Assembly (NCBI GenBank): GCA_000433175.1
Contig: HF986704.1
Coordinates: forward strand, 1 to 54,621
DNA length: 54,621 nucleotides
Direction: 5' to 3'
From: Prevotella sp. CAG:1058
Lineage (GTDB): Bacteria > Bacteroidota > Bacteroidia > Bacteroidales > Bacteroidaceae
Part shown: in pieces, positions 3,098 through 44,427 of the stretch
Numbering within the stretch: the stretch's first letter is position 1
Layout of the letters: the number at the start of each line of letters is the position of its first letter
Notes under the pieces: model-generated
Told to the model about the DNA's origin: nothing
The model's input: only the letters and a program-made list of their open reading frames with translations
The model's database searches: none
Position numbers and translations under genes: made by a program

Positions 3098-3187
3098 CTA
3101 AAAGGTGGCCTTTTGCGTTCCAAAAGGTCGCCTTTTATGTATCAATAGGTATCCTTTTACGAGCCGAAAGGTTACCTTTCGCAAATG
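3098..3187. repeat. 22-bp-period array A (4 units)
   Basis: Four head-to-tail 22-bp units start at 3098, 3120, 3142 and 3164. Their cores are AAAAGGTGGCCTTTT, AAAAGGTCGCCTTTT, AATAGGTATCCTTTT and CGAAAGGTTACCTTTCG. The fourth keeps perfect dyad symmetry through paired A-to-G and T-to-C changes. The array lies in the 334-bp gap between the barrel gene and the next regulator, upstream of that regulator's promoter. Confidence 0.9.
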
Positions 3188-3336
3188 GGGCGGTACGCAC
3201 TTGCCGTTTCATGTTACAAGTTACATGAGAATGATGATGGTTTTTACTGCCTTCATTGTTGCTTTTTATAGTAATTTGCTATGGGCGTTGACAATCTGAA
3301 AAAGTATTTGATAGTGTATTATTGGTCTTTGAAACG

Positions 3337-3368
3337 TTTGCTGCAAAGGCGGATTTTTATTACTTTTG
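3337..3368 (+). promoter_or_regulatory. Promoter of TPR-HTH regulator
   Basis: TTTG 3337-3340, 20 bp, TACTTTTG 3361-3368. The start codon at 3374 is 5 nt beyond the -7 element, so the mRNA should be leaderless or nearly so. Confidence 0.7.
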
Positions 3369-3373
3369 CAGAT

Positions 3374-4975
3374 ATGAAAAATACAATTTACATTGTTTTA
3401 TTTATAATGCTGATCACCGTTTCGTGTAGTGGCGATGGCGGTGTCGGGGGAGAGCTGGCTGCCATCGATTCACTGGCGGACACACGCGCCGATAGTGCGC
3501 TGTGCCTGCTCGATGCCATGAAGGAACGCATGGCCGGCGAAGACACGCCGGCGCAGATGTATTACAGTCTTGTACGCATCAAGGCAACTGATAAGGCAGG
3601 ACTTCGTCCGGCGTCTGATTCTGTTATCCAGCGTGTTGTCAGCTATTACGAGAATGACGGTGAACAAGGGCTGTTGCCTGTTGCTTATTATTATGCGGGG
3701 CGTGCTTACCGCAGGATGAACGACGCTCCGCGGGCGCTTGGCTATATGCAGAAAGCTGCAGAAGCAGCTGATGGACAGGGCGTTAAGGGACGGCTACGCA
3801 GCAAGATATATTCGCAGACAGGCTATCTTATGTCTTTACAGGGCTTTGCAGCCGAGGCGCTGGAGTGCCATGAAAAAGCTTATGCTGCCAGTCGTGCTGT
3901 TGGTGACACGTTGGGAATGGTGTTTAGCCTGAGAGACATTGGCGAGGAGAGTTGGAGCCTGAACCGGGGAGATTCGGCACTTTCGTATTACAGCCGTGCG
4001 GCAGAGCTTGCACTGGCGTGTGGTGAAATGGAAGCCTATGCCAACGTGAACAGGCAGATGGCTGTAATCTGGCTGATAAAGGGGAATACGGAAATGGCAG
4101 GACGTGCGTTGCGGTGCTCGGAGGTATATGTTGACTCAGCCGATATTAGTTCCACGCTGTCAATCTATGCCGACTATTACGCACAGGCCGGTATGGCCGA
4201 TTCGGCATTGGTTTGTGACCGGCGTCTTGTCTCGGAAGGAAACGTTTATGGACGGCGTGCGGCTTACGGCAGGATGACGGAATATTATCTTGAACGTGGC
4301 GACGTGTCAGCGGCACGTCGATGTTTCGCCATGTACCGCGCTTATGGTGATTCCGTAGCGGCCGTGACGGCGGCAGATGAGATGGCTGACGCTTACGCCA
4401 TGTATGACTATAAGTTGAGGGAGAAGGAGAACATGGAATTGATAGTGAAGCGTAATAATGACCAAGTGAAACTGGTTGTGCTCGGTTCATTGTGTATTGT
4501 TTTAGCTTTGGCGACGGCTTTTCTCGTTGTACGCAACAGGTTGCGAGCCCAGTTGCGACGTTTCAAGAAAGAACGGTTAAGGCACATCGAGGCTGAGGCT
4601 GCCGGAACAGGCGGGCACGACGGACGGTTTGAGCAATTGGTGGCTACCGGCGCATACATGAATGTACAGAAGAGGATAAGCGAGTATCCTGTTAAGCAGG
4701 TGTCGCTGACAGACATCGAGTGGCGCGAATTGGACGAGGAGGTGAACAGGGTGTACTGTGGCTTCGGGCGTAAAGTGCGCGAACTATGTAGCATGAGCAG
4801 GCACGAATACCGTGTTTGCCTGTTGGTAAAGATAGGCGTGGCACCGGTAAACATAGCCCAGATGACCAACCATAGCAAAGAAGCTATAACTTCAGTGCGG
4901 CGAAGACTGTTCTTCAAGGCTTTCGGCGAAAAGGCTTCACCTGCGGAGTGGGATAAGATAATACGCTCATTATAA
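3374..4975 (+). CDS. TPR lipoprotein / transmembrane / HTH regulator
   Basis: 533 aa. I chose the ATG at 3374 because it gives a signal peptide with a lipobox (MKNTIYIVLFIMLITVSC) directly after the promoter; an upstream ATG at 3281 precedes the promoter. TPR-like helical repeats fill residues 30-340 (for example YYYAGRAYRRMNDAPRALGYM). A membrane helix is at about 365-386, then a basic coiled coil, and a C-terminal helix-turn-helix (MSRHEYRVCLLVKIG..NIAQMTNHSKEAITSVRRR, about 473-515). This is a one-component transmembrane regulator of the same type as the gene at the left edge, with which it shares the C-terminal fold pattern. Both a lipidated N-terminus and an internal membrane helix would tether it twice. 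Ligand and targets are unknown. Confidence 0.8.
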   Translation: MKNTIYIVLFIMLITVSCSGDGGVGGELAAIDSLADTRADSALCLLDAMKERMAGEDTPAQMYYSLVRIKATDKAGLRPASDSVIQRVVSYYENDGEQGLLPVAYYYAGRAYRRMNDAPRALGYMQKAAEAADGQGVKGRLRSKIYSQTGYLMSLQGFAAEALECHEKAYAASRAVGDTLGMVFSLRDIGEESWSLNRGDSALSYYSRAAELALACGEMEAYANVNRQMAVIWLIKGNTEMAGRALRCSEVYVDSADISSTLSIYADYYAQAGMADSALVCDRRLVSEGNVYGRRAAYGRMTEYYLERGDVSAARRCFAMYRAYGDSVAAVTAADEMADAYAMYDYKLREKENMELIVKRNNDQVKLVVLGSLCIVLALATAFLVVRNRLRAQLRRFKKERLRHIEAEAAGTGGHDGRFEQLVATGAYMNVQKRISEYPVKQVSLTDIEWRELDEEVNRVYCGFGRKVRELCSMSRHEYRVCLLVKIGVAPVNIAQMTNHSKEAITSVRRRLFFKAFGEKASPAEWDKIIRSL

Positions 4976-5010
4976 GGGAGTTATGGTTGTGTGCGCATGC
5001 GCTTATGCCA

Positions 5011-5030
5011 GTGTGCATGAAGATGCACAC
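5011..5030. other. Perfect 8-bp hairpin, possible terminator
   Basis: GTGTGCAT, GAAG loop, ATGCACAC lies 36 nt after the regulator stop. There is no U-tract, so intrinsic termination is uncertain. Confidence 0.4.
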
Positions 5031-5060
5031 CGCTTGAACACGCTTTGCACACGCGGAAAT

Positions 5061-5091
5061 ATTGATAAGTTGAACCTATAATATAATTTTG
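5061..5091 (+). promoter_or_regulatory. Promoter of 51-aa small protein
   Basis: TAATTTTG 5084-5091 is an exact -7 match; ATTG 5061-5064 is a 3/4 match to the -33 box at 19 bp spacing. The ATG at 5095 follows 3 nt after the -7 box, implying a leaderless mRNA. Confidence 0.6.
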
Positions 5092-5094
5092 CAA

Positions 5095-5250
5095 ATGAAA
5101 AAGACGAAGAAAGTTAAAAACATTTTTTCAGTCGTATCAGTGTTGGTGACTGCCGTCATCGGTTTGTTGGCTGACGGACTGTCGGGTGTGATGAGCCTGA
5201 TAGGTTTCCCGCCCGACAAGAAAAGCGACAAGGGCAACGACATTATATGA
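5095..5250 (+). CDS. Small membrane protein, 51 aa
   Basis: The gene is short but supported by a promoter immediately upstream. The product starts with a lysine-rich stretch (MKKTKKVKN), then one hydrophobic segment (IFSVVSVLVTAVIGLLADG, about 10-28), a second shorter one (LSGVMSLIGF), and a charged tail PPDKKSDKGND. I do not recognise the family. Size and layout recall the tiny membrane peptides Bacteroidetes genomes carry in quantity, but no homology claim is made. It may form a unit with the 39-aa lipoprotein 122 bp downstream. A positively charged N-terminus plus a single helix also fits a type I toxin-like peptide, for which no antisense RNA was seen. Confidence 0.55.
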   Translation: MKKTKKVKNIFSVVSVLVTAVIGLLADGLSGVMSLIGFPPDKKSDKGNDII

Positions 5251-5372
5251 CGACACCGGCGCTCGGCACGGCTGGAAAACAAGACAAAGGCAGACCTGAC
5301 TGCTGATAAGAAAAAAGGACGGTTGCGAAAATCGCCGCCGGTATATGGTTAACATTATAATATTTTATTATT

Positions 5373-5492: not shown

Positions 5493-5507
5493 TTACGATT
5501 TCAATTT

Positions 5508-5948: not shown

Positions 5949-5999
5949 CCAACCAGTAACATTTATTTTGATTAATACATGCTGTTTGTTTAAACAGTT

Positions 6000-6032
6000 A
6001 AGCCCATGGTGTTGTGCGTCAGCCATGGGCTT
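6000..6032. terminator. Hairpin terminator, 10-bp stem
   Basis: AAGCCCATGG / CCATGGGCTT with a 13-nt loop, about 50 bp after the 146-aa membrane protein. A small second hairpin (CTGTTTGTTTAAACAG) sits just upstream at 5981-5996. Confidence 0.6.
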
Positions 6033-6142
6033 TGCTGTTGTATTGGTGTAAGTCAGCCGTCAAGATGTCGTACGGTAACGTTTCTTTTGTAAACGCTGCG
6101 GTGTAAGGTAACAATAAAAAAGCTTGTTTAACGCCTTATAAT

Positions 6143-9043: not shown

Positions 9044-10502
9044 ATGTTTTCAAGTACAAAGGACAATGCGCTGCTGGCAATGATACGCGACGGCCGCGAG
9101 ATGAGCGGCAGTCAGAAGCTGAACCTGATAGTCCAGCTCAGTGTGCCGTCAATACTGGCCCAGCTTACAACGATAATGATGTTCTACATCGACGCGTCGA
9201 TGGTCGGCTCGCTCGGCGCCGAGGCATCGGCGTCGATAGGCATAGTAGAGTCTACCACGTGGCTTTTCGGCGGACTTACGTCGGCTGCTGCGCTCGGTTT
9301 CTCGGTGCAGGCTGCCCACTTCATTGGTGCCAACGACTTCGACAAGGCGCGCCAGGTGTTCCGTCAGGGACTTATGGCCACGGCCCTTTTCACGATAATA
9401 CTTACGTCGGTATGCGTGGCAATAGCCGGTCCGTTGCCGCGTTGGCTTGGCGGTGATGCCAGCATCCAGGCCGACGCCTCGTCGTATTTCATGATATACT
9501 GCCTTGCTTTGCCAGTCTACCAGATAGGCGTCCTGTCGTCGAGCATGCTGAAATGTTCGGGCAACATGCGCATACCCAGCCTTACGAGCATACTTATGTG
9601 CGTGCTCGACGTGGTGTTCAACTTCTTCCTTATTTATGAGACTCGCCATGTTTCGCTTTTCGGCATCGGCATTACCATGCCCGGGGCAGGCATGGGCGTG
9701 TCCGGTGCTGCGCTCGGTACGGCGCTTGCCTATACAGTGACTGGCGTCTTGCAGACATGGTTCGCTACGGTACGTTCGCCCGAACTGTCGTTGAGGAACG
9801 GTAAGTGGACGTTCGCCCCGCAGTGGAACTACCTGCGCAACGCCGCCAGGATAAGCCTGCCCATGGGCGCGCAGTACATGATGATGAGCGGTGCGCAGAT
9901 TGTAAGCACGATGATTGTTGCTCCGCTCGGCAACATTGCCATAGCAGCCAACACGCTGGCAATCACCGCCGAGAGCCTCTGCTACATGCCGGGCTACGGC
10001 ATTGGCGAGGCGGCCACCACGCTTGTAGGCCAGAGCATAGGCGCAGGCCGGCAAAGGCTGGCGCGCGGTTTTGCCTACCGTACGGTGTTCCTTGGCATGG
10101 GCGTAATGGCTTTCATGGGTGCCGTGATGTATGTCCTGGCCCCCGAGATGATAGCCATAATGACACCTGACGAGCAGGTGCGCCTGCTAGGCTCGCAGTC
10201 GTTGCGCATCGAAGCCTTTGCCGAGCCGATGTTCGCCGCTTCGATAGTCGTATACAGCGTATGCCTCGGCGCAGGCGACACGTTCGTTCCTGCATGCATG
10301 AACTTTGCCTCGATGTGGCTCCTCCGCCTTACGCTGGTCGCATGGCTCGCCCCGGTGTACGGCCTGGCTGGTCGCATGGCTCGCCCCGGTGTACGGCCTG
10401 CCCGGCGTATGGACGGCAATGGCAATAGAGCTGACGTTCCGCGGAACGATATTCCTTGTCCGCCTGTTCAGGGGCAAATGGCTGAACAAGGGGTTCAAGT
10501 AA
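9044..10502 (+). pseudogene. MATE-family multidrug/Na+ antiporter, frameshifted by a 34-bp tandem duplication
   Basis: Inner-membrane exporter of the MATE (DinF/NorM-like) family. Residues 1-429 are intact, with about eleven membrane segments and typical sequence (SVPSILAQLTTIMMFYIDASMVGSLG; GAGMGVSGAALGTALAY). At 10333-10400 a 34-bp segment occurs twice in perfect tandem. Because 34 is not a multiple of 3, the frame shifts, the last helix is lost, and an abnormal Arg/Pro-rich tail runs to a stop at 10622-10624, through the terminator hairpin and into the convergent gene. Deleting one copy restores a 474-aa protein ending in WTAMAIELTFRGTIFLVRLF..KGFK at 10502 (1459-34 = 1425 bp, exactly 475 codons). 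Function of the shifted form is doubtful. Confidence 0.85.
10333..10400. repeat. Perfect 34-bp tandem duplication
   Basis: Copies at 10333-10366 and 10367-10400 are identical, beginning GCTGGTCGCATGG and ending GTACGGCCTG. Located within the MATE gene; see that entry. Confidence 0.97.
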
Positions 10503-10616: not shown

Positions 10617-11555
10617 TTACCTGATGGCTTCTTTCGCCTTGTCGAATCCTTCGACAAGCGTGCGCATAACTTCGGCCACGGGCCTTACGCTGCCTACCGC
10701 CGAGGCTATCTGTCCTATTTCAAGCTCGCCGCCGTCCATGTCGCCCTCGAAGATGCCGCGCTTCGACGCCGCCTTGCCCAGTATCTCGCGCAGCTCGTCT
10801 GCCGACGCACCGTTGTCCTCGGCCTCCTTCACCTTGTCGTACAGCGTGTTCTTAACCAGTCGGGTAGGGGCAATCTTCTTCAGGCAGAGCATGGTGTCGC
10901 CCTCTTGCAGCGATACGCACTTCTGCTTGAATGCATCAGACGCCGAACTCTCCTCTGTCAGTGCGAACAGTGTACCTATCTGTACGCCCTCTGCACCGAG
11001 CACCATCGACGCAAGTATTGCCTCGCCCGACGCTATGCCACCTGCTGCGATGAGCGGCAGGCTTGTGGCGCGGCGCACCTGTGGTATGAGCGTCATCGTA
11101 GTAGTCTCCTCACGGCCGTTGTGTCCGCCGGCCTCGAAGCCCTCTGCCACGATGGCGTCTACCCCGGCTTCCTCGCACTTGCGTGCAAACTTGCTGCTCG
11201 ACACTACGTGTACAACCTTTATCCCCGCCTCGTGCAGCATCGGCGTAAACTTCTTGGGGCTGCCTGCCGACGTGAATACAATCTTCACTCCGCTGTCGAT
11301 GATTAGTTGCATCAGTCGGTCGATTTCCGGATACATCAGCGGCACGTTGACGCCCCACGGCTTGTCGGTCGCCTCCTTCATCTTGGATATGTGTTCGGCA
11401 AGTGTCTCTGGGTGCATCGAGCCTGCGCCTAACAGGCCCAGTCCGCCTGCGTTGCTCACAGCCGACGCCAGCCTCCAGCCGCTGCACCATACCATTCCGC
11501 CTTGTACTATGGGATACTTTATCCCGAAAAGTTCCGTTATTCTGTTCTTTTCCAT
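10617..11555 (-). CDS. FMN-dependent enoyl-ACP reductase II (FabK-like) / nitronate monooxygenase family
   Basis: 312 aa, TIM-barrel flavoprotein. Family landmarks: PIVQGGMVWCSGWRLASAVSNAGGLG (phosphate/FMN loop, about 15-40, FabK-like spacing), EAGGHNG with the catalytic His (about 142-148), AAGGIASGEAI (about 171) and GAEGVQIGTLFAL (about 188). FabK reduces enoyl-ACP in fatty-acid synthesis; nitronate monooxygenases oxidise nitroalkanes. The two share these motifs and cannot be separated safely from sequence alone. Its size and the NRITELFGIKYPI start favour FabK-like. Monocistronic: own promoter upstream, convergent neighbour downstream. Confidence 0.85.
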   Translation of the reverse strand: MEKNRITELFGIKYPIVQGGMVWCSGWRLASAVSNAGGLGLLGAGSMHPETLAEHISKMKEATDKPWGVNVPLMYPEIDRLMQLIIDSGVKIVFTSAGSPKKFTPMLHEAGIKVVHVVSSSKFARKCEEAGVDAIVAEGFEAGGHNGREETTTMTLIPQVRRATSLPLIAAGGIASGEAILASMVLGAEGVQIGTLFALTEESSASDAFKQKCVSLQEGDTMLCLKKIAPTRLVKNTLYDKVKEAEDNGASADELREILGKAASKRGIFEGDMDGGELEIGQIASAVGSVRPVAEVMRTLVEGFDKAKEAIR

Positions 11556-11634
11556 AATATTTTTAATTGTTCAGTCTAATCAGGTCAATACTTTATGCCA
11601 GGCCTCTGCCTGTCATTACAGGATAAGGGCCGGA

Positions 11635-11642
11635 CAAAGATA
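11635..11642 (-). promoter_or_regulatory. -7 box of the FabK-like gene
   Basis: TATCTTTG on the minus strand, 79 nt before the start codon. No good TTTG at the expected -33 distance. Confidence 0.5.
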
Positions 11643-11807
11643 ATGGAAAAAAACGAGATTGCCGGCAAATAGCATAAAAATGATTTAAAGAGGCTGCGCA
11701 TTGCAGGTCCAGCCGTCATGGACGGTGAGCTTACGGTAGGAGTTATATTCAGTAAAATGTTTTGATTTGCCGATGAAACAGATACATTACATTTCATCCG
11801 GATTTGC

Positions 11808-11893: not shown

Positions 11894-11981
11894 GCAAAAG
11901 ATGGCTTCTTACCGTGCAAAAGATGGCCTCTCAGCCTGCAAAAGGTATCCTTTTATGAGACGAAAAGCCATGTATTGCAAT
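11894..11981. repeat. 22-bp-period array B (4 units)
   Basis: Units start at 11894, 11916, 11938 and 11960. The first three begin GCAAAAG, with cores AAAAGATGGCTTCTT, AAAAGATGGCCTCTC and AAAAGGTATCCTTTT; the fourth is strongly degenerate (ACGAAAAGCCATG). The array lies between the -7 box at 11808 and the start at 12041, so it is probably transcribed as a 5' UTR. Confidence 0.85.
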
Positions 11982-12040: not shown

Positions 12041-13207
12041 ATGGAAAATATTTTACAGATGAGGAAGATTTTAGGAATAATGGCTTTCATCGTTGTAGGC
12101 TGCTTGCCGGTGATAGCGCAAACAACAGAAAAGATGAATAGGATAGATGCTTGCAAACTGAATTACCGCCAGCTGTTCGGTGCCGAGGCGCTGACAGGGC
12201 AGGGCACAGACCCGGAAATGATGGATATACTGCAGAAATTCATCTTCGGCGAAGTGTTCCAGACTGGCGACCTTACCATGAAACAGCGTGAAATGATTAC
12301 CTGCATCACTCTTGCCGTACAGCAGGCCATACCCCAACTTGAAGCCCACGCCGGTGCCGCACTCAATGTTGGAGTTTCTCCTGAAGAACTGCGTGAGGTG
12401 ATTTATCTTACGGCTCCGTTCATAGGGTTCCCAAAGATGCTTAACGCCACGGTGGCTGTCAATGCAGTTTTTGAGGAACACGGCATAGAGTTGCCTCTTG
12501 AAAGGCAGGGATGTGTGACTGACGGCAGCCGCCATGACACGGGCAAGGCCATCCAGGACAGGCTTTATCCGGGCGGCATATCTTCTGCGATGGAGGGTGT
12601 GCCTGGTGGTATGGGCAATGACGTTGAGCGTTTCCTTACAGACTATTTCTTCGGAGAGATATACAGCCGTGGCGCTCTTGACCTTAAGACGCGCGAGCTG
12701 CTGGGCTACTGCGTGCTGGCTACTGTTGGAGCTGAAAGCCAGCTACGCTCCCATTATCATGGAAACGTGAACGTAGGCAACACACCTGAAATTATGACTG
12801 CGGCAATAATACAGTGCCTGCCTTATATAGGTTTTCCGGCAGCAATAAAGGCTCTTGGCATAATAAAGCAGGAATATGCCCGGACGATAAAGGCCGGTGT
12901 TAATCTTGTACGCCTGTCAAGGATAACGGTAAAGCCGGACATGCTCGATGCCTACAACGGTTTACTGAAGGAGGAGATTGAAGCATCGATGAGGCTTGAA
13001 CCAGGCGTTCTGACTCTGTATGCCACTGCTGAAAAGGACAGGCCAAACAAGATAACCATCCTTGAAATTTACTCGGATACTACGGCTTACAGGAAACATC
13101 TGTCCACACCGCATTTTAACAAATACAAAAAAGGAACGTCGGCCATGGTCGAAGAACTGGAACTTGTTGACGTTGAACCTCTTATTCCCGGATTGAAAAT
13201 CAAGTAA
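12041..13207 (+). CDS. Secreted fusion: two carboxymuconolactone decarboxylase (CMD) domains + ABM monooxygenase-like domain
   Basis: 388 aa from the ATG at 12041, or 382 from 12059, which gives a cleaner signal peptide (MRKILGIMAFIVVGCLPVIAQ). The open frame extends upstream to 11804, but that part only covers promoter and repeat DNA. The first CMD domain (about 30-125) has TMKQREMITCITLAVQQA and LEAHAGAALNVGVSPEELREV; the second (about 170-270) has LKTRELLGYCVLATVGAESQLRSHYHGNVNVG. The C-terminal third (LVRLSRITVKPDMLDAYNGLL...LEPGVLTLYA) is an antibiotic-biosynthesis-monooxygenase-type ferredoxin-like domain. CMD proteins include AhpD-like thiol reductants. The substrate is unknown. A flavodoxin gene follows 22 bp later, so a redox role is likely by inference. 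Confidence 0.82.
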   Translation: MENILQMRKILGIMAFIVVGCLPVIAQTTEKMNRIDACKLNYRQLFGAEALTGQGTDPEMMDILQKFIFGEVFQTGDLTMKQREMITCITLAVQQAIPQLEAHAGAALNVGVSPEELREVIYLTAPFIGFPKMLNATVAVNAVFEEHGIELPLERQGCVTDGSRHDTGKAIQDRLYPGGISSAMEGVPGGMGNDVERFLTDYFFGEIYSRGALDLKTRELLGYCVLATVGAESQLRSHYHGNVNVGNTPEIMTAAIIQCLPYIGFPAAIKALGIIKQEYARTIKAGVNLVRLSRITVKPDMLDAYNGLLKEEIEASMRLEPGVLTLYATAEKDRPNKITILEIYSDTTAYRKHLSTPHFNKYKKGTSAMVEELELVDVEPLIPGLKIK

Positions 13208-18190: not shown

Positions 18191-18610
18191 ATGTACACAT
18201 TATTTGTAATCTTAATCGTACTGGTGGCACTGCTGATGATAGGAATAGTGCTGATACAGGAATCAAAAGGTGGAGGACTTGCATCCAACTTCTCATCTTC
18301 AAACCAAATCATGGGTGTCCGCAAGACTACGGATGTCATTGAAAAGACAACTTGGGGACTTGCCATCGCAATGGTAATTCTGAGCGTAATCTGTGCTTAT
18401 GTTGCTCCGAAGGCAACCACATCGGAGAGCGTTATAGAAAGAAACGCAACCGAACAGCAGCAGACCAATCCTAACAATCTGCCTGGATTTGGCGCCAGCC
18501 AGACAAAGCAGGCTGCTCCGGCTAAGCAGGCCGCTCCTGCTAAGCAGGCCGCTCCTGCTGAAGGAACTGCAAATCAGGCTCCGCAAGCTCCTAAGACACC
18601 TGCAAAATAA
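18191..18610 (+). CDS. secG: Protein translocase subunit SecG
   Basis: 139 aa. Two membrane helices (LFVILIVLVALLMIGIVLI, about 4-22, and WGLAIAMVILSVICAYVAP, about 57-75) flank the conserved cytoplasmic loop QESKGGGLASNFSSSNQIMGVRKTTDVIEK. SecG supports SecA-driven export through SecYE. The C-terminal tail (about 80-139) is Pro/Ala/Gln/Lys-rich and contains three exact-phase copies of KQAAPA encoded by an 18-bp tandem repeat (18506-18559), so tail length may vary between strains. Last gene of the operon. Confidence 0.95.
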   Translation: MYTLFVILIVLVALLMIGIVLIQESKGGGLASNFSSSNQIMGVRKTTDVIEKTTWGLAIAMVILSVICAYVAPKATTSESVIERNATEQQQTNPNNLPGFGASQTKQAAPAKQAAPAKQAAPAEGTANQAPQAPKTPAK

Positions 18611-27683: not shown

Positions 27684-27771
27684 GCAAAAGGTTGCCTTTT
27701 ATGATGTAAAAGGTGGCATATTGCCTTGCAAAAGGATGCCTTTGACGGCGCAATATGCCACCTTTTGTTTT
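27684..27771. repeat. 22-bp-period array C (4 units)
   Basis: Units start at 27684, 27706, 27728 and 27750. Cores: AAAAGGTTGCCTTTT, AAAAGGTGGCATATTGC, AAAAGGATGCCTTTG and GCAATATGCCACCTTTT. Unit 4 is the reverse complement of unit 2 over 17 of 18 bp, so the array contains a long inverted repeat. Located between the divergent divIC-like gene and the nuclease gene. Confidence 0.9.
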
Positions 27772-27952: not shown

Positions 27953-28042
27953 CATAAAATTTACATGTGCTCGGTGATTTGAAGTAACTTTGGTCAAATT
28001 CACGTGTTTGCGCTTGCCTTAATGTTAATATATTGCAACGAC

Positions 28043-29095
28043 ATGAAGAATAAGTTATCATTGTTTTTAGTATTGTCACTTCTTTTGGTGGCAGTATGCG
28101 GCAACGCCCAGAAAAAATTTTCTGTTTACGCCGTAGGCTTTTACAATCAGGAGAATCTTTTCGACACCTGTCATGATGCAGGCAAGAACGACCGCGAGTT
28201 CCTGCCTACCGGTTCATACAGGTGGAACGGGTTGAAATACACCCATAAGCTGCGCAACATGGCGCGCGCGCTTGCCGACATGGGCACCGACGTGTTGCCC
28301 GATGTGGGCTGCGCCGTGATAGGACTTTCTGAGGTTGAGAACTCGAAAGTGCTCGACGACCTCACCGCCCAGGAGCCATTGCGCGCGCGTGGATATAAAT
28401 ATGTACACATAGAAGGTCCCGATACACGTGGAATTGACTGTGCAATGCTGTATAACCCGTCGCTCTTCGAAGTAAAGGACGCTAAACTTCTGCCGTACGT
28501 GCCTGACGAGACGATGAAAAGCGACTTAAAGACGCGCGGATTCCTTACCGTAAGCGGCGAGATGGCCGGCGAACCGGTAACGGTCATCGTGTGCCACTGG
28601 CCTAGCCGTTTTTCGGGTCCGGCCTACCGTGAGCGTGCGGCATACCTCGTGAAGGACATCAAGGACTCGCTGCTGCGTGTGGACCCTGCTACCAAGGTGT
28701 TCATAATGGGCGACATGAACGACGACCCTACCAACAAGAGCATGAAAGACATACTTGGTGCCAAACCCGAGGTCAAGGACGTAAAGGATGGCTGTATGTA
28801 TAACCCGTGGTACAACATACTTGTCAAGCAGGGCACCGGAACATTGTCATACCAGGGCTCGTGGAACCTGTTCGACCAGATTGTTATGACTCCCAACCTT
28901 GTCAATACTGACGGCAAGAAAGACTTTTCCACACTGAAATACTGGAAAAACCAGATATTCCGCCGCGACTATCTCATGAATACGGAAGGCCGTTACAAAG
29001 GCACACCTAAGCGTACACATGCCAGCGGAATATGGCTCGACGGGTTTAGCGACCACCTGCCCGTAGTGGTTTATCTTGTAAAGGAGCAGAAATGA
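28043..29095 (+). CDS. Secreted endonuclease/exonuclease/phosphatase family protein
   Basis: 350 aa. The start at 28043 gives a signal peptide (MKNKLSLFLVLSLLLVAVCGNAQ). Catalytic landmarks of the EEP fold: GFYNQENLFD (Asn/Glu start), IGLSEVEN (metal-binding Glu, about 101), VCHWPSRFSG (His, about 185), IMGDMNDDP (Asp/Asn, about 223) and SDHLPVVV (catalytic Asp-His, about 340). It probably cleaves nucleic acid or phosphoesters in the periplasm; the specific substrate cannot be read from the sequence. Its last codon overlaps the next start as ATGA. Confidence 0.9.
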   Translation: MKNKLSLFLVLSLLLVAVCGNAQKKFSVYAVGFYNQENLFDTCHDAGKNDREFLPTGSYRWNGLKYTHKLRNMARALADMGTDVLPDVGCAVIGLSEVENSKVLDDLTAQEPLRARGYKYVHIEGPDTRGIDCAMLYNPSLFEVKDAKLLPYVPDETMKSDLKTRGFLTVSGEMAGEPVTVIVCHWPSRFSGPAYRERAAYLVKDIKDSLLRVDPATKVFIMGDMNDDPTNKSMKDILGAKPEVKDVKDGCMYNPWYNILVKQGTGTLSYQGSWNLFDQIVMTPNLVNTDGKKDFSTLKYWKNQIFRRDYLMNTEGRYKGTPKRTHASGIWLDGFSDHLPVVVYLVKEQK

Positions 29096-35484: not shown

Positions 35485-37467
35485 ATGTTTATGAAAAAGA
35501 CATTACTTTGTTTGTTCGCTTTACTGCTGTCGGCGACAGTGGTCGACGCGCAGAAAGTAGCCGGAGTGCTGAATGCTCCATCCAACGTTTTGAATAAGAA
35601 GGAAGCTCTGCGTAGCATACAGCCTATGAAGGCTCCGTCTGTTCCTAACAGAATCGCTCTTGACGAAGGCGAGCGCCTTTTCGGCTTTTATAATACGGAC
35701 GAACTTGACCTGAGCGGATACAGTAGTTTAGGTCTGACGGGTTATCCTGGCAGTTATTCTGCTGGTGCATTGTTCTATTCTGATGTCGTATCAGGATTTT
35801 CTAATGCAGTAAGCGGCCAGATTACAAAGGTTCGTTTTGCAGTTGCCGAGTCAATCGGATCTACGACAGTTCGCATTTTCCCTGTTGATCTTAATTCAGG
35901 CCAGATTGGCGAAGCTGCAGCCGAGGAAGCGGTTGCAAGTACTCAGAAAGGCTGGAACGATGTTGTCTTAACAACTCCTGTAACGGTAGAGGAAAACACA
36001 GGCTATCTGATTTCTTATGACTATACTCAGACGTCAAGGAACTATCCTCTTCTTTCTGACATGAATGTTAACCCTAATGGCGAGACAGGTGACGGCTTCA
36101 TGATATATGGCAACCTTGGCCAGGGAACAGGCTGGTACGGCATGTCTGATGCCGGAAACCTCTGCATCCAGTTTGTTGTAAAGGGTGGAAACTATATTGA
36201 CAATGACGTAGCATTGACCAAGATGTCTTTGGCTAAGCAGTATTTCAAGGCTGACGGTGAATTGGAATATAGCTTCGGCGTCATGAACATGGGTGACGAC
36301 GTACCTGCATCATACACTTTGGAGCTTTCAGTTGACGGCAACGTTGTTGAAACTCTTGAAAGCCCTATCGCTCTTACCAATACAGCACAGTCTGTTACAG
36401 GCAAGCTCGCTTTGCCTTCAGGCCTGTCTGTTGGCGAGCATAAGGTTGCTGTAGAGGTAACCAAGATTAATGGCGAAACTCCTACTGAGAATGTTGCAGA
36501 CGACAAGGCTGAAACTTCTTTCTATGTATACAGCGAAAGCCTGCCGCGCCAGATGAACCTTATTGAGGAATATACTTCTACCTTGTGTGGATATTGCCCG
36601 CTCGCACATCAACTTTTTGAAAAATGGACTAAAACACGTAACGACTTAATTATAGTTGCCAACCATAACAGCGGCATGGGCAAATCTGATCCAATGATTA
36701 CTACTGAATCTGATATGCTGGCTATGGCGTTCCCTACGAGTGGAATGCCTTCGGCTGCGTTCAACAGATTCTATAATGCTGATGAAGGCGCTGTAAATTT
36801 CCCAGTCGGTTATGACTCTTCTTACCATGAAATGGTAATAGACCAGACGCTTAATCCGTTCATCGAGCAGACTAATTCAATACCTACATTTGCAGCTGTA
36901 GACCTCAAGGCTGATTACAATGAGAATACACGCCAGCTTAACATCAACGTTTCAGGTGAAGCTGTTGCTGACTTCAAGACATTTGTCGGCGAGGATGCTG
37001 TATTGACCGTATACCTGTTGGAAGACAGTATCATTGCAAGCCAAAGTAGTTACGTACCATACTCGCATACGGAAAAGGACTATGTGCACAACCATGTTTT
37101 GCGCGACGTAGTAAGCAAGAACGTATTTGGCGACGCTATCAACTGGACAGACGATACACATTACTCAAACGACTTCACCGTAACTTTGGACGGAAGCTGG
37201 AATGTGAAGAACATGAATGTAGTTGCATTCATTTCACGTCCTGTTAAGGAAGAGAGCGATGTTACAGATATGTGGGTAAACAATGCAAACATTACTCGTG
37301 TATTAAGCGGTGAAACCGGCATCAACGGTGTCGTTAACGGCGGTGAGGATGTTAAGGAAGTAGCACGTTACAGCATTGACGGCACAAGGATTTACGCTCC
37401 TGTCAAGGGCATCAACATTATCAAGATGTCTGACGGCACTACTAAGAAAGTCATGATTGCCGAGTAA
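35485..37467 (+). CDS. Large Omp28-related protein with C-terminal sorting-like domain
   Basis: 660 aa (658 from the second Met at 35491). Signal peptide MKKTLLCLFALLLSATVVDAQ, no lipobox. An N-terminal beta-sandwich (about 60-235) is followed by an Ig-like/CARDB-like segment (about 240-350) and the Omp28 thioredoxin-like domain NLIEEYTSTLCGYCPLAHQLFEKW with CGYC (about 366-369), then the beta-domain with VHNHVLRD. The last 40 residues (VARYSIDGTRIYAPVKGINIIKMSDGTTKKVMIAE) look like a type IX secretion sorting domain. Surface or secreted location is therefore likely. Probably works with the lipoprotein Omp28 just upstream, although it has its own promoter. Confidence 0.85.
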   Translation: MFMKKTLLCLFALLLSATVVDAQKVAGVLNAPSNVLNKKEALRSIQPMKAPSVPNRIALDEGERLFGFYNTDELDLSGYSSLGLTGYPGSYSAGALFYSDVVSGFSNAVSGQITKVRFAVAESIGSTTVRIFPVDLNSGQIGEAAAEEAVASTQKGWNDVVLTTPVTVEENTGYLISYDYTQTSRNYPLLSDMNVNPNGETGDGFMIYGNLGQGTGWYGMSDAGNLCIQFVVKGGNYIDNDVALTKMSLAKQYFKADGELEYSFGVMNMGDDVPASYTLELSVDGNVVETLESPIALTNTAQSVTGKLALPSGLSVGEHKVAVEVTKINGETPTENVADDKAETSFYVYSESLPRQMNLIEEYTSTLCGYCPLAHQLFEKWTKTRNDLIIVANHNSGMGKSDPMITTESDMLAMAFPTSGMPSAAFNRFYNADEGAVNFPVGYDSSYHEMVIDQTLNPFIEQTNSIPTFAAVDLKADYNENTRQLNINVSGEAVADFKTFVGEDAVLTVYLLEDSIIASQSSYVPYSHTEKDYVHNHVLRDVVSKNVFGDAINWTDDTHYSNDFTVTLDGSWNVKNMNVVAFISRPVKEESDVTDMWVNNANITRVLSGETGINGVVNGGEDVKEVARYSIDGTRIYAPVKGINIIKMSDGTTKKVMIAE

Positions 37468-37669: not shown

Positions 37670-37757
37670 TCAATAGGTTGCCTTTTGCGTTGCAAGAGGT
37701 AACCTATTGTGATGTAAAAGGTTATCTTTTACAATGCAAAATACGACCTTTTGCAAG
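37670..37757. repeat. 22-bp-period array D (4 units)
   Basis: Units start at 37670, 37692, 37714 and 37736. Cores: AATAGGTTGCCTTTT, AAGAGGTAACCTATT, AAAAGGTTATCTTTT and AAAATACGACCTTTT. CAATAGGTT of unit 1 is the exact reverse complement of AACCTATTG in unit 2; unit 3 is itself GTAAAAGGTTATCTTTTAC. Lies between two convergent genes, outside any leader. Confidence 0.9.
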
Positions 37758-38081: not shown

Positions 38082-39014
38082 TTATCGTTTGCCTCCGAAG
38101 TTGCCTCCATGTCCTCCGCCTTTGTTGCCACCGGACTGTCTGTTGCGTCCTCCGCTGTTCCTGTTACCTCCGCTGAATGATTTTCTCGTTCCTGTATTTC
38201 TATTTATGGTGGTATGTTGATTGCTTCTTTTGGGCGTGAAGATGTTGCTTGGGCGTTTTTGCGCGTTCTTGCCGAAGTTTGCGCCCTTGTTTGGACGCGC
38301 CGTGGTCCGTGTGCTGCTTTCCCTGTGGCTTCTTGTACTGCCGCGGTTTCCCTTGAACTTGTATTTCTGGGTCAGCTTATTGTTGTTGTTCTGCATTTTC
38401 ACGGGCGTGCCTGTGTGCCGGTTGCCGTGCATGTTGTTGACTCTTTTGTTTCTTCCAGTGTGTGTGCCAGGCCTTTTCCTGTCACCATGGTGGAATTCGC
38501 CGCGGTCGAAGCGGTCCTTCATGCCGTTCCATTTTGAGCCATGCCCGTGGTGGAAGGTTCGCCCTTTATACCAGCTGCGCCCGCCGTTGTGCCTCCAACT
38601 GTGTCCTCCGCGGTAAGTCACGTATATGTTGGTGTGGCCGAAATACAGGTAGTGGCGCCGCGGATAGCGCGAGTATACGGCGAAGTGCCATACGCCCGAC
38701 GTCCAGTACAGCGGGCGGTAGAAGTATGCTGCAGCGCAGAAAGCCCTGTATTGCCAGTCTAGAAGTATGTAGCTGAGGTCAAGGTTGCGCTGGCGCCAGT
38801 AAGCCTCGTACAGGTCGTCAGGCGTATTTACGCTCATCAGGTAGTCCAGATTCACTTCGTAAGCAGCGTCATATTGCTCTTCGGTCAGGTTCAGCTCGTA
38901 AGCCATCTTGTCCGTAAGGAACAACGCCTGCTCGCGTGCTTGCTCGTAGCTCATGGCGCTTGTCGTGGCCGTAAGCGTGAAGAGCAGTGCCGTTATTGCT
39001 ATAATCCTTTTCAT
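38082..39014 (-). CDS. Secreted protein: LTxxQ-like helical domain + long basic, low-complexity tail
   Basis: 310 aa from the ATG at 39014 (signal peptide MKRIIAITALLFTLTATTSA); the frame is open 75 nt further upstream without a better start. The N-terminal domain has helices with KMAYELNLTEEQYDAAYEVN, an LTxxQ motif like that of periplasmic Spy/CpxP proteins, followed by aromatic, Trp/Tyr-rich sequence (YFYRPLYWTSGVWHFAVYSRYP). The C-terminal half (about 150-310) is very rich in Arg, Lys, Gly, Asn and His (FHHGHGSKWNG; GGNRNSGGRNRQSGG) and ends in GGKR. Estimated pI is very high. Possible roles are metal or nucleic-acid/polyanion binding; none is shown. Monocistronic. Confidence 0.75.
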   Translation of the reverse strand: MKRIIAITALLFTLTATTSAMSYEQAREQALFLTDKMAYELNLTEEQYDAAYEVNLDYLMSVNTPDDLYEAYWRQRNLDLSYILLDWQYRAFCAAAYFYRPLYWTSGVWHFAVYSRYPRRHYLYFGHTNIYVTYRGGHSWRHNGGRSWYKGRTFHHGHGSKWNGMKDRFDRGEFHHGDRKRPGTHTGRNKRVNNMHGNRHTGTPVKMQNNNNKLTQKYKFKGNRGSTRSHRESSTRTTARPNKGANFGKNAQKRPSNIFTPKRSNQHTTINRNTGTRKSFSGGNRNSGGRNRQSGGNKGGGHGGNFGGKR

Positions 39015-39353
39015 GACTTGATGTTTTTGTATGTTACTTGTATTTCTGCGGAACAGCCTTTCAGGTTTTCCTGTTGCAAAGAAAGTCATTTATTTTGTAT
39101 TGGTAAAAGGTTTTTCCCTAACAACAATCGGGGAAATCCCTATTTTGCATATTGTTTGAAGCAAGGTTTCTTCTATTTCCGGGTTATACTATTGTATTAT
39201 GTTTTGCAGACTGTTGGTATTGTCTGAATAATGTGGCTTTGGGGTGTTCGGAATCCACGGACGGGCTTCTAATGCCTGCTGATTACGGTTTTTCGTCTCC
39301 TTACGGTTGCCGTTTATAATAAATTTATGAAATAGGCGTTATAAATTAAAGTA
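39015..39353. other. Divergent intergenic region, no element recognised
   Basis: 339 bp between two divergent starts. One near-match to the -7 box on the plus strand (TATGTTTTG, about 39199-39207, one base too long); no array, ORF or hairpin of note. Confidence 0.4.
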
Positions 39354-41412: not shown

Positions 41413-42513
41413 TCAGGCTTTTACTGTTTTTCTTTTGTTAATGTAGTAGTTAAGCACAAGGTTCAGACTGATGTAAATTATTACGTCCGCAATGAATACG
41501 TAGGTGTTTTCTATCGATTTAAGCAGATTGTAGTTTAGTGCTATGTATGCAGCGGCCATTGTAATTATGAACGCCAACGCCTGATGTTGGCTTAGTCCGG
41601 CGTGGATTAGTTTATGGTGAATATGGCTTTTGTCTGCCATGAACGGTGATTTGCCGTGGTATATGCGTACCATGGATACCCTTACAACGTCGAACATGGG
41701 CACTATCAGCAGTGTGAACGCCATGAAGAAGTCGAACTTGTGTTCGGTTATTACGGCCGTGTTGCTCATTGAGTATTTCACGCACAGGAATCCCAGTATG
41801 AATCCAAGGGTAAGGCTGCCCGCATCGCCCATGAATATCTTTCTGTTTTTGTCGGGGTCGCCAAACATGTTGAAGTACAGGAACGCCACCAACACGCCTA
41901 TCAGTCCGGCTATCAGTATGGCGTAAGCCCATATTTCCTGGGATGCGAACATGTATAGGAATCCTGCCAGTGCCATTATCGACAGGCTTGCGGCCAGTCC
42001 GTCAATACCGTCAATCAGATTGATGGCGTTGTCGATGAAGACAATTGCAAGAACAGTGAGCGGGAATCCTATGAAATAAGGCAGTTCGTGTATGCCCATG
42101 AAGCCGTACAAGTTGTTAATATACAGCCCTGAAAACGGCAGGAAGCACGCTGCTATTATCTGTACAACGAACTTTATGAGCGGCGACAGTCCTACAACGT
42201 CGTCTATTATGCCCATTACGTATATAAGCAGTATGCTGATAAGGAAATAAAGGCTCCAGATGTTTATGGTTATCAGCTTGTCGGTTACGCTTATAGCCGA
42301 CAGGGCTATGGCGAAAGCTATGAACATGCTTGGCATGAAAGAGATGCCGCCGAGACGTGGAATTGCGCTTTTATGTATCTTGCGTGAGTTCGGAATGTCG
42401 TACAGTTTCTTTGCCTTGCAGAAGTTAAGGATTATTGGAATGAAGACGAATCCGCATGCCATGCTTATAATAAAGACGCCGATTATCCAATATATGTATA
42501 TGTTCATAAACAT
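41413..42513 (-). CDS. Undecaprenyl-phosphate sugar-1-phosphate transferase (WecA/MraY family)
   Basis: 366 aa (364 from the Met at 42507), about eleven membrane helices. Catalytic landmarks: GIIDDVVGLSP with the Asp pair (about 101-111), IFIDNAINLIDGIDGLA (about 158-174), the FMGDAGSLTLGF loop (about 226-237) and the C-terminal HIHH (about 293-296) that marks the WecA-type subgroup. It transfers a GlcNAc- or related sugar-1-phosphate from UDP to undecaprenyl phosphate, starting surface polysaccharide synthesis. The other required genes are not in this window. Alone on its strand here. Confidence 0.92.
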   Translation of the reverse strand: MFMNIYIYWIIGVFIISMACGFVFIPIILNFCKAKKLYDIPNSRKIHKSAIPRLGGISFMPSMFIAFAIALSAISVTDKLITINIWSLYFLISILLIYVMGIIDDVVGLSPLIKFVVQIIAACFLPFSGLYINNLYGFMGIHELPYFIGFPLTVLAIVFIDNAINLIDGIDGLAASLSIMALAGFLYMFASQEIWAYAILIAGLIGVLVAFLYFNMFGDPDKNRKIFMGDAGSLTLGFILGFLCVKYSMSNTAVITEHKFDFFMAFTLLIVPMFDVVRVSMVRIYHGKSPFMADKSHIHHKLIHAGLSQHQALAFIITMAAAYIALNYNLLKSIENTYVFIADVIIYISLNLVLNYYINKRKTVKA

Positions 42514-42642
42514 TCATTTGTTATACAGTTACAAAGTATAAACCCCTAAAGTCTTAAAATATTGCACAGTATATTAAAATAATGTTTATTGACATGTAAA
42601 ACGTGTTTCGTCCTTCTACGTATCCGGCCTTAATGCTTCCTG

Positions 42643-44235
42643 TCAGTCAACGTAGTTCAGTCCCTGCATGCATGTCTTTACCTTGTCTCCCTTTCTTATT
42701 ATGATGTTGCCTGCCTTCCTGCCTTTTATCTCAAGGTCGAGTGCGTTGCCGGGCACGTAGAACGTAACGTTGTCGAACGTAACGTTGCGGCTGTCGTCGA
42801 AAACCATCCTGTTGTCGGTTGCCTGTATTTCCAGGTTGCTGAACGTGAAACCGTCTGCGTCGTTCATTGTCCTTATAATACGGTTTGTCCTTATCTTACC
42901 GTTTTCTATCCTGACGTTCGAGCAAGGTATTTCGGGTATTGCGTTTACGGTCAGCAGCCTGTCGGCCGACTCAACCGTGAAGTTGCGTATCGTTATGTCC
43001 TTTACGGTCGGCGTAAGCGGCGTGATGTCGAGTGGGGGATAGCGGCGGGCAAGCTCGCCCATGTACATTTTTGAGCCCAACAGGTCCCATGTGAAAGCTT
43101 CGCGCACGTTTACCAACTTCACGTTCTCGTAGGTTATACCCTCCACGGTGCCTCCGCGGTTGCGTCTTGTCTTGAAGCGGAAGCCCGTGCGAGTGCCGTA
43201 GAACAGGCAATCGTGCAGGTACACGTTGCGTATGCCGCCTGCGGTCTCGCTGCCGCAGGTTATGCCGCCGTGTCCTTCCTTCGCCAGGCAGTAGCGTATC
43301 ACCACGTTTTCCGTCGGCTTGTTCACGCGCAGTCCGTCGTCGCAGCGCCCCGCCTTAAGCGTGAAGCAGTCGTCGCCGCAGTTCAGCGTCGAGTATTCTA
43401 TCAGTACGTTCCTGCACGACGATATGTCAATGCCGTCGCCGCTGGGCACGTCGGTAGAGTTTACCGTTATGCCTCTTATTATCACGTTTTCGCAATATAC
43501 GGGGTTAACGTTCCACAGCACGCTGCGTTCGAACGTCACGCCTTCAACCAAAACATTCTTGCAGTTGATGGGCGAGAACGATTTCGGGCGGTAGAACGTG
43601 CGCCCGTCGTAGCCGTCGCATACACGTTCCTTCACAGGCATATCGTAGGGCACGTCGTTCTCCACCACGCTCTTGCCGTTGGGCAGTGTGCGCATGGCAG
43701 CAGTCATTGGCGGTCCCATTATTTTGCCTTCGCCCGTCAGGGCTATGTTTTTCTCGCCGTTGGCGTAGATGAAGGCTCCTGCGCCCATTATCTCCACGCC
43801 CTCGTGGCGTGTGAACACGGCAGGCTGGTAGTCGTCTATCGAGCCCGAAAACTCTATCACGGCACCTTTGTCAAGCCGCAGGTTCACGTTGCTCTTAAGT
43901 ACGATGCGCCCAGACAGCCAGTGGCCGGCAGGCACTACCACTGTACCACCGCCACGTTTTGACATGTCGGCAATCAGCTTGTTTATGCCTTCGGTTATCT
44001 TTCCGCCGTTGCCTTTTAAGTCATCCGTTACACTCTCGGTCTTGTCAGGGAACTTTGGGCGCTTCAGGTCTTTCATCTTGAATGGCACATTGCCTATTGC
44101 GGCTATGGTTTCGGGCATTGCCGCCGCACCGGTGTTCTTGTCCGTCAGGTTGTTATAGTCTGTGTCTGCGCTGGCTGCCAGTAACGGCAACAACGCAATG
44201 AGCGATAATAGCGATTTAAGTTTGATAGTCGTCAT
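42643..44235 (-). CDS. Glycoside hydrolase family 28 (polygalacturonase-like)
   Basis: 530 aa. Signal peptide MTTIKLKSLLSLIALLPLLAASA. Right-handed beta-helix with family landmarks: TVVVPAGHWLSGRIVLKSNVNL (about 97-118), the catalytic-type segment SGDGIDISSC (about 266-275), NCGDDCFTLKAG (about 286-297), the GHGGITCGSE His/Gly region (about 320-329) and the substrate-binding FRFKTRRNRGG (about 349-359). GH28 enzymes cleave pectic galacturonan or rhamnogalacturonan with retained Asp residues; exact linkage cannot be inferred. Periplasmic or outer-membrane location. No SusCD pair is nearby, so it is an isolated carbohydrate enzyme in this window. Confidence 0.88.
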   Translation of the reverse strand: MTTIKLKSLLSLIALLPLLAASADTDYNNLTDKNTGAAAMPETIAAIGNVPFKMKDLKRPKFPDKTESVTDDLKGNGGKITEGINKLIADMSKRGGGTVVVPAGHWLSGRIVLKSNVNLRLDKGAVIEFSGSIDDYQPAVFTRHEGVEIMGAGAFIYANGEKNIALTGEGKIMGPPMTAAMRTLPNGKSVVENDVPYDMPVKERVCDGYDGRTFYRPKSFSPINCKNVLVEGVTFERSVLWNVNPVYCENVIIRGITVNSTDVPSGDGIDISSCRNVLIEYSTLNCGDDCFTLKAGRCDDGLRVNKPTENVVIRYCLAKEGHGGITCGSETAGGIRNVYLHDCLFYGTRTGFRFKTRRNRGGTVEGITYENVKLVNVREAFTWDLLGSKMYMGELARRYPPLDITPLTPTVKDITIRNFTVESADRLLTVNAIPEIPCSNVRIENGKIRTNRIIRTMNDADGFTFSNLEIQATDNRMVFDDSRNVTFDNVTFYVPGNALDLEIKGRKAGNIIIRKGDKVKTCMQGLNYVD

Positions 44236-44317
44236 GATAGTTGTCTTGTTTGTTATATAAGACGTGCTTGATTTCGATTTGTAATGTTGTTTTTACAGGA
44301 TAATTATCCTGTGTTTT

Positions 44318-44427
44318 GCAAAAGGTCGTGTCTTGGCTTGTAAAAGGCGGCCTTTTGCGAGGTAAAAGGTTACCGTTTACAACGTAAAAGGTGGCCTTTT
44401 GTAATGTAAAAGACGGCTTTTCAGAAT
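44318..44427. repeat. 22-bp-period array E (5 units)
   Basis: Units start at 44318, 44340, 44362, 44384 and 44406. Cores: AAAAGGTCGTGTCTT, AAAAGGCGGCCTTTT, AAAAGGTTACCGTTT, AAAAGGTGGCCTTTT, AAAAGACGGCTTTT. This is the longest array, between the GH28 start and the 3' end of tmRNA, about 83 bp ahead of the GH28 start. Confidence 0.92.

What the first reader, a model, noticed from the sequence alone, without database searches (positions are those of the whole stretch)
3098..44427. A family of five intergenic arrays with an exact 22-bp period and palindromic cores
Arrays at 3098-3187, 11894-11981, 27684-27771, 37670-37757 and 44318-44427 hold 4, 4, 4, 4 and 5 units, all at a 22-bp step without indels. 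The consensus core is G[C/T]AAAAGGTNNCCTTTT, about 17-19 bp of dyad symmetry with 3-5 bp between cores. Sequence drifts strongly within the core while the period and symmetry hold. All copies are intergenic, in every kind of position: leader, divergent gap, convergent gap, upstream of a promoter. Two helical turns per unit would place cores on one face of DNA, suggesting cooperative protein binding, a nucleoid/chromosome-organising site, or an RNA made of repeated hairpins. I know no named element matching this; Prevotella-type genomes may carry many.
Basis: seen in the sequence. Interest (0 to 1): 0.85.

Follow-up and report, generated by a model that had tools for sequence, protein, structure and literature searches.

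The report
Prevotella four-site 22-bp palindrome arrays
Some Prevotella bacteria seem to carry a hundred or more short DNA stations between their genes, most often four degenerate mirror-image sites spaced two turns of the helix apart; they look like landing pads for a still unknown multi-unit DNA-binding protein rather than RNA hairpins or ordinary jumping repeats.

Summary
All five arrays are at the stated places with a 22-bp step, and all 16 strong cores of the window lie in them. The window's own genome is not held, so relatives were used. The same arrays occur at 4.6-7.8 per 100 kb in its nearest array-bearing relatives. In 21 of 200 genomes of one Prevotella genus there are five or more paired matches; order and phylum samples show almost none. 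Four units is the commonest size (77 of 145). Of arrays with three or more units, 115 of 125 lie outside ORFs. At one locus an array recurs in 5 of 6 genomes, with letters no more alike than unrelated arrays. Mismatches show no RNA-strand bias, halves of a unit do not covary, and RAYT-type transposases do not track the arrays. Best reading: a double-stranded DNA platform for several protein dimers on one helix face. The protein is unknown; Lrp/AsnC octamers fit the geometry but occur in all 34 genomes tested. Unexplained: outer halves of units 1/2 and 3/4 resemble each other (z 4.3).

The parts
3098..3185 (.). Array 1: four 22-bp dyad units, gap between two + strand genes (886-3039 OMP_b-brl_3; 3281-4975 TPR protein)
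11894..11981 (.). Array 2: four units, gap between two + strand ORFs (10624-11643, no Pfam match; 12041-13207, carboxymuconolactone decarboxylase-like)
27684..27771 (.). Array 3: four units upstream of the Exo_endo_phos_3 gene (28004-29095 +); units 2 and 4 are reverse complements of each other apart from two end positions. An array lies upstream of the same gene in 4 of 5 relatives
37670..37757 (.). Array 4: four units in the convergent gap between 35485-37467 (+, Omp28 domain) and 38082-39089 (-, no Pfam match); units 1 and 2 form an 18-bp inverted pair (16 of 18) around a 3-nt spacer
   Evidence: pairing read from the sequence
44318..44427 (.). Array 5: five units between the GH28 gene (42643-44235 -) and the tmRNA gene (44617-45017 -)

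Best explanation
The arrays are double-stranded DNA stations: most often four degenerate dyad sites, unit form GYRAAAGRY-N-RYCTTTYRC plus a 3-bp linker, stepping 22 bp (two helical turns). A sequence-specific protein acting as several dimers (ideally four) would bind all sites from one face. A/T tracts every 11 bp with G+C-richer steps between them would help the DNA bend or wrap round the complex. Shown here: the architecture, the period, the preference for four units in most genomes sampled, intergenic placement, strand symmetry, and recurrence of an array at one orthologous locus. Inferred: that a protein binds, that it bends or wraps DNA, and what this serves (local gene control, nucleoid architecture, or both). 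The binding protein is not identified.
For: Strongly preferred 22-bp period. Commonest unit number 4: 77 of 145 arrays. Column profile of the 59 four-unit arrays from the window and five near relatives is dyad-symmetric: position 2 is C or T in 97%, position 18 A or G in 97%, and A4, A6, T14, T16 reach 0.93-0.97. AA/TT phasing at 11 bp is 0.597 in 77 arrays against 0.233 in 77 other intergenic stretches; at 10.5 bp 0.470 against 0.246. Strand-neutral mismatches. Half-sites within a unit vary independently, as expected for protein half-site contacts and not for a helix of paired bases. Of arrays with three or more units, 115 of 125 lie outside ORFs of 90 aa or more, although such ORFs cover 86.5% of the stretches. 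An array lies upstream of the same gene in 5 of 6 genomes; the three in-register pairs among window, G219 and G456 share 49-53 of 88 positions, against 50.0 (sd 5.6, 1299 pairs) for non-orthologous arrays of different genomes.
Against: Outer halves of units 1/2 and 3/4 resemble each other as inverted copies beyond chance (z 4.3, 0 of 2000 shuffles), and adjacent units also show a weaker direct similarity (z 2.3, 24 of 2000); simple protein binding predicts neither. Four is not universal: G310 has mostly five (7 of 15) and G456 as many arrays of two or three as of four (6 each of 18). Only 3 of 15 orthologous gaps with both neighbours found hold an array in the other genome, so positions turn over. 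In the array-3 orthologs of G219 and G456 one of the four unit places scores below the detection limit. No binding protein was found; Lrp/AsnC genes are in all 34 genomes tested, rich or poor. No expression or binding data exist here.
Confidence: 0.55

Rival explanations
1. A REP/BIME-like structural element: adjacent units 1/2 and 3/4 form long imperfect hairpins or cruciforms (19-bp stems, 3-nt loops) recognised as folded DNA, or as RNA in either orientation.
For: Inverted similarity of u1:u2 (12.31 of 19 against 11.53 in shuffles, 0 of 1000) and u3:u4 (12.02 against 11.63, 33 of 1000) but not u2:u3 (11.97 against 11.94) in 59 arrays; pooled half-site test over 77 arrays z 4.3 for outer halves, 1.9 for inner. 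Arrays in tandem gaps lie nearer the upstream stop in 51 of 70 cases.
Against: Only 9 of 59 arrays have u1:u2 at 16 of 19 or better (2.4 expected), so most doublets pair only partly. No significant G-U excess on the sense strand. The orthologous arrays at the array-3 locus keep the units but, by eye, no common pairing scheme.
Confidence: 0.22
2. A selfish mobile repeat (MITE- or PINSR-like) whose old copies have drifted.
For: Patchy occurrence, needing 10 changes on an ABC-F tree of 45 rows; array present in one genome and not found in another in 12 of 15 gap comparisons, with one apparent empty site about 150 bp shorter, read by eye; closely similar longer elements with the same phased units in G072 and G530.
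Against: Almost no conserved columns outside the units in the near relatives (TT just before unit 1 and one further column); within-genome four-unit arrays share on average 52.4 of 88 positions, at most 72 (412 pairs), too little for recent copying, yet the 22-bp step is intact; Y1_Tnp transposases are not associated. Other transposase families were not tested.
Confidence: 0.15
3. Bidirectional transcription terminators or mRNA 3'-end stabilisers.
For: Closer to upstream stops than to downstream starts in tandem gaps (median 78 against 172 bp; 51 of 70, Wilcoxon P 2e-5).
Against: No significant enrichment in convergent gaps (29 of 125, tandem 70 of 338, divergent 17 of 113; chi-square P 0.27); no sense-strand wobble signature; no conserved T-run longer than two beside the units.
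Confidence: 0.08

Closest known systems
Lrp/AsnC-family target regions (octamers of four dimers)
   Same: Clusters of imperfect (semi)palindromic sites with centre-to-centre spacing of two or three helical turns on one face, and DNA wrapped by higher oligomers (PMC2995911, passages seen; PMC10201364, passages seen). Four sites would match four dimers.
   Different: The passages I saw describe control regions of genes; genome-wide intergenic four-site arrays are not described in them. No protein was shown here; Lrp/AsnC genes occur equally in genomes without arrays.
REP elements / BIMEs
   Same: High-copy intergenic palindromes in regular spacing, with proposed protein-binding and chromosome-organising roles (PMC2817692, abstract seen).
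   Different: No link to Y1_Tnp (RAYT-type) transposases, 22-bp phase, four units as the commonest size, little shared sequence between copies beyond a degenerate half-site in the near relatives.
PINSR, the 188-bp intergenic repeat of Prevotella intermedia/nigrescens
   Same: Intergenic, 177 and 184 copies in two strains, found by PCR only in some Prevotella species, no terminal inverted repeats (PMC4755523, section 3.4 read).
   Different: Described as one alignable 188-bp consensus; its sequence is in a figure that is not held, so whether it contains phased 22-bp units could not be checked.
BrickBuilt of Porphyromonas gingivalis
   Same: Intergenic tandem repeats of a similar unit length.
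   Different: 23-nt unit AGAYCATARTATCCTCTCRTRTG, different in sequence; 1 to 22.8 copies; leader, tail and terminal repeats (PMC4596501, passages seen).
SlmA / Noc nucleoid-occlusion sites
   Same: Sites scattered round the chromosome and read by a sequence-specific DNA-binding protein (PMC4331003 and PMC4726725, starts of abstracts seen in the listing).
   Different: No phased four-site arrays are known to me for them (recalled); no such protein was sought here.

Membership tests
REP/BIME with RAYT | Cognate REP-associated tyrosine transposase (Y1_Tnp) in the genome | tested here: not met
   PF01797, which also covers IS200/IS605 transposases, in 4 of 18 array-rich and 13 of 16 array-poor genomes
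REP/BIME with RAYT | High-copy intergenic palindromic units | tested here: met
MITE | Terminal inverted repeats and target-site duplications | tested here: not met
   Near relatives: almost no conserved columns outside the units in 59 aligned four-unit arrays. Target-site duplications were not tested systematically, and the ends of the longer G072/G530 elements were not analysed
BrickBuilt | 23-nt repeat of the published consensus with leader and tail | tested here: not met
   Period 22 and a different unit, compared by eye with the consensus printed in PMC4596501
PINSR | 188-bp consensus sequence | not testable with these tools
   Consensus is in a figure only
Lrp/AsnC multi-dimer target | Several imperfect palindromes at two or three helical turns | tested here: met
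   criterion from PMC2995911
Lrp/AsnC multi-dimer target | Presence of an Lrp/AsnC protein that tracks the arrays | tested here: not met
   PF01037 in 18 of 18 rich and 16 of 16 poor genomes, 1-4 copies each; subfamilies were not separated
Lrp/AsnC multi-dimer target | Direct binding | not testable with these tools
   needs the protein
Structured RNA | Compensatory or wobble-preserving changes on the transcribed strand | tested here: not met
   Within-unit compensation z 0.0 and no significant wobble bias; but inverted similarity between units 1/2 and 3/4 is present. Rfam at gathering scores finds only tmRNA and a tRNA in the window

The most novel reading that the evidence does not exclude
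The arrays are a bacterial DNA-wrapping code: about 88 bp with A/T tracts every 11 bp and four dyads, one for each dimer of an octameric architectural protein (Lrp/AsnC-type or an unknown one). It would be repeated every 10-20 kb, giving some Prevotella chromosomes sequence-programmed nucleosome-like stations whose phase is conserved while the letters drift to saturation.
Probability: 0.2. Interest if true: 0.9.

Novelty: new variant of a known kind. Interest (0 to 1): 0.72.

Why it matters
How the Bacteroidales chromosome is organised is, to my knowledge, largely unknown. A dispersed, phase-locked, mostly four-site array found in part of one group offers a concrete handle: one pull-down could identify the protein, and array-rich and array-poor related species provide natural comparisons. 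It also suggests selection on helical phase and dyad symmetry more than on sequence, which alignment-based repeat finders would miss.

Tried and rejected
RNA hairpin model: rejected as the main reading because mismatches between units are strand-neutral. Doublets of 53 tandem-gap arrays have GU 217 and AC 226. Adjacent unit pairs with at least 12, 13, 14 and 15 Watson-Crick pairs have GU 151, 99, 70, 33 and AC 134, 92, 64, 30 (95, 71, 56, 31 pairs): a slight GU lead at every cut, far from significant by my estimate. Sense and antisense MFE means are -32.3 and -31.4, sense lower in 28 of 53. Per-array GU:AC splits are close to binomial (chi2 79.3, df 70).

RAYT/REP: rejected. Intrinsic terminator: weak. 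MITE: almost no conserved flanks in the near relatives. BrickBuilt: consensus differs. Phage origin: exact two-unit pattern in 1 stretch of the viral collection, an exact three-unit pattern in 0.

A test of whether arrays end sharply was dropped: the absence of a further unit at step 22 follows from how arrays were extended. The same call shows 7 off-step units (score 10 or more, steps 17-33) beside array ends, 290 ends looked at.

Ori/ter polarity: the 18 arrays with an exact two-unit match on the 1.98-Mb contig of G310 fall 6, 4, 4, 4 by quarter (hand count); GC skew of sampled stretches changes sign several times, so ori and ter could not be placed. Regular spacing of arrays: pooled CV 0.83 over 68 gaps, near random.

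Lrp/AsnC as a discriminating gene: not discriminating. Of 30 Lrp/AsnC loci scanned at a slightly laxer cut, 2 have an array of three or more units in the fetched stretch.

Papers: ten searches listed nothing that I recognised as a description of these arrays; the library lacks most subscription papers. Text was opened for nine papers: PMC4755523 (section 3.4 and passages), PMC2817692 (abstract and outline), and passages of PMC4596501, PMC5608340, PMC12306157, PMC10201364, PMC2995911 and PMC8481266; the term search in PMC2267715 returned no passage.

Limits: ORF calls are a simple longest-ORF heuristic. Unit counts depend on a cut of 8 of 12. The search pattern AAAAGG..CCTTTT misses species whose half-sites differ, so counts are lower bounds. 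In the family search 171 of 399 genomes have at least one match and the reversed-pattern control reaches 9 in one genome, so only high counts mean anything there; those genomes' arrays were looked at only in part (G302, G310, G219, G318, G007 and G072). The tool shows no group names; the genus is taken as Prevotella because the centre genome G007 holds a contig titled Prevotella sp.. Whether all rich genomes of the family search belong to that genus is not known; G068 falls outside the main Prevotella branch of the ABC-F tree and its matches were not inspected. Five of the fifteen G007 stretches were chosen because hits were known there.
Full report
Observation. All 16 window cores scoring at least 10 of 12 against AAAAGGNNNCCTTTT lie in the arrays; ten shuffles gave 2.6 on average. 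A two-unit 22-bp pattern finds all five and nothing in 1.5 Mb of shuffled sequence.

Relatives. No whole genome is held for the window. Among 29 array-bearing genomes compared, the nearest five by ABC-F identity are G219, G478, G456, G465 and G302 (83-85%). In sampled stretches I counted 20 arrays in 400 kb (G219), 18 in 390 kb (G456), 25 in 345 kb (G465), 30 in 384 kb (G478), 2 in 37 kb (G302) and 15 in 400 kb (G310), plus 27 in 300 kb (G007, five of fifteen stretches chosen for known hits) and 3 in 100 kb (G318). With the window's five this makes 145.

Distribution. With AAAAGGNNNCCTTTT twice at 22 bp and up to 3 mismatches, 36 of 200 genomes of the genus of G007 have a match and 21 have at least five, up to 432. 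In the order sample 9 of 393 match: G007 with 23, G724 with 5 (its places lie at irregular distances and look different), the rest with 1. In the phylum sample 7 of 296 match, none but G007 above two. A second, laxer pattern in 399 genomes of the family matches at least once in 171, mostly 1-5 times, and 14 to 330 times in twelve; the reversed-pattern control gives 0 to 9. On an ABC-F tree of 45 rows the array-rich label needs 10 changes, at least 8 forced by supported branches, with 29 of 500 shuffles as low; that sample was chosen for array-rich genomes.

Anatomy. Step 22 is strongly preferred, with a few 23-bp steps. Unit numbers over 145 arrays: 20 with two, 21 with three, 77 with four, 17 with five, 10 with more. 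Four leads in G219 (10 of 20), G465 (17 of 25), G478 (21 of 30) and G007 (13 of 27), ties in G456 (6 of 18), and does not lead in G310 (3 of 15; five units in 7). The pooled profile of 59 four-unit arrays (window and the five near relatives) is dyad-symmetric: G, Y, R, A, A, A, G, R, Y, N, R, Y, C, T, T, T, Y, R, C, then a 3-bp linker. Position 2 is C or T in 97% and position 18 A or G in 97%; A4, A6, T14 and T16 reach 93-97%. AA/TT steps are phased at 11 bp (0.597 against 0.233 in other intergenic stretches). Outside the four units almost nothing is conserved (TT just before unit 1 and one further column). Other species use other half-sites or centres (GGCTG or CTATC centres; AAACAAC halves in G007) with the same step.

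DNA or RNA. If the units were RNA hairpins, mismatches on the transcribed strand should favour G-U over A-C. They do not clearly do so: 217 and 226 over doublets of 53 tandem-gap arrays; 33 and 30 in the 31 best-paired adjacent units, 151 and 134 in 95 at the loosest cut. The two halves of a unit do not covary at all (77 arrays, z 0.0), so the dyad of a unit is not kept by compensation; each half is kept separately near its consensus. This fits protein half-site recognition.

One structured signal remains. The outer halves of units 1 and 2, and of units 3 and 4, resemble each other as inverted copies (z 4.3, 0 of 2000 shuffles; inner halves z 1.9; across the middle z 0.0). Adjacent units of a doublet also show weaker direct similarity (z 2.3, 24 of 2000). 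The signal is carried partly by a minority of arrays with nearly perfect inverted pairs (9 of 59 with u1:u2 at 16 of 19 or better against 2.4 expected). Inverted duplication, template switching or a real doublet hairpin could cause it. I do not explain it.

Place in the genome. 115 of 125 arrays with three or more units lie outside ORFs; ORFs cover 86.5% of the stretches. Gap types do not differ significantly (chi-square P 0.27), but in tandem gaps arrays lie closer to the upstream stop in 51 of 70 cases. That may be no more than avoidance of promoters.

Evolution. Where orthologs of both flanking genes were found within 2.5 kb of each other in a sampled relative, 3 of 15 comparisons hold an array there; one of the three is a loose match over a 2.3-kb interval of the window, and the query set includes arrays of two and three units. 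At the gene downstream of array 3 (Exo_endo_phos_3, 82-85% identical) an array lies upstream in the window, G219, G456, G302 and G478; upstream of the G465 gene no unit scores above 9 of 12 and the neighbouring sequence is different. In G219 and G456 the automatic count was two and three units; laid in the 22-bp register there are four places, one of them weak in each. Window, G219 and G456 share 49-53 of 88 positions, the same as non-orthologous arrays (50.0, sd 5.6); the G302 comparisons (32-37) are out of register by one base after its first unit and not informative. So either array form is kept while letters saturate, or arrays are regained at the same place. I favour the first.

A sequence-conserved form. 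In G072 and G530 (G072 has replicons of 1,796,408 and 1,371,874 bp, which I recall as those of P. melaninogenica) elements of roughly 110-180 bp recur with closely similar sequence (11 aligned copies, mean column identity 71%). In the seven copies laid out, units fall at steps -22, 0, 22 and 44 in all seven and at -44 in five. Eleven of the twelve fetched stretches hold the element; the twelfth (L319) was a mistyped position. These resemble PINSR of P. intermedia in length and habit, but that sequence could not be compared.

Mechanism. I commit to a double-stranded DNA platform for several dimers, most often four, bound on one face and probably bending the DNA. A known precedent for imperfect palindromes at two-turn spacing bound by oligomers of dimers is the Lrp/AsnC family. 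The family is present in all 34 genomes tested, rich and poor, so it is available but does not explain the patchiness. RemA, an octameric ring that wraps poorly conserved repetitive DNA (PMC8481266, passages), shows that other proteins work in a comparable way.

Verdict. Real, found only in part of the Prevotella group as far as sampled, phase-locked, and not matched by anything in the papers searched; function unproven.

Noticed in passing
L297:7286 (G007): Nine-unit array containing four identical or nearly identical copies of GTAAAACAAATTGTTTTGGTAT: a recent tandem expansion inside an otherwise diverged array.
   Followed up: no
G310:C1:43297-43377 and C3:394507-394587: Two arrays with identical stretches in inverted orientation: a recent duplication or an assembly duplicate.
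   Followed up: no
L335:1158 (IMG/VR contig): A four-unit array on a 4.2-kb contig of the viral collection; may be host DNA.
   Followed up: partly
L200:4629 against L266:263-419: Apparent empty site: the occupied gap is longer by about 150 bp, more than the 88-bp array, read by eye.
   Followed up: partly
L358:1247 (G530): A five-unit array close to an Lrp/AsnC gene; 2 of 30 such loci have an array in the fetched stretch.
   Followed up: no
window 10333-10400: Perfect 34-bp direct repeat (2.0 copies) inside a long ORF.
   Followed up: no
window 18506-18559: Three copies of an 18-bp unit inside an ORF (18191-18610).
   Followed up: no
L265 and L327 intergenic regions: Another inverted repeat, GTCATCCCGGACTTGATCCGGGATCC-like, in intergenic gaps of G465 and G478, seen by eye.
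   Followed up: no
window 44617-45017: tmRNA gene with tag GENKYALAA next to array 5.
   Followed up: no
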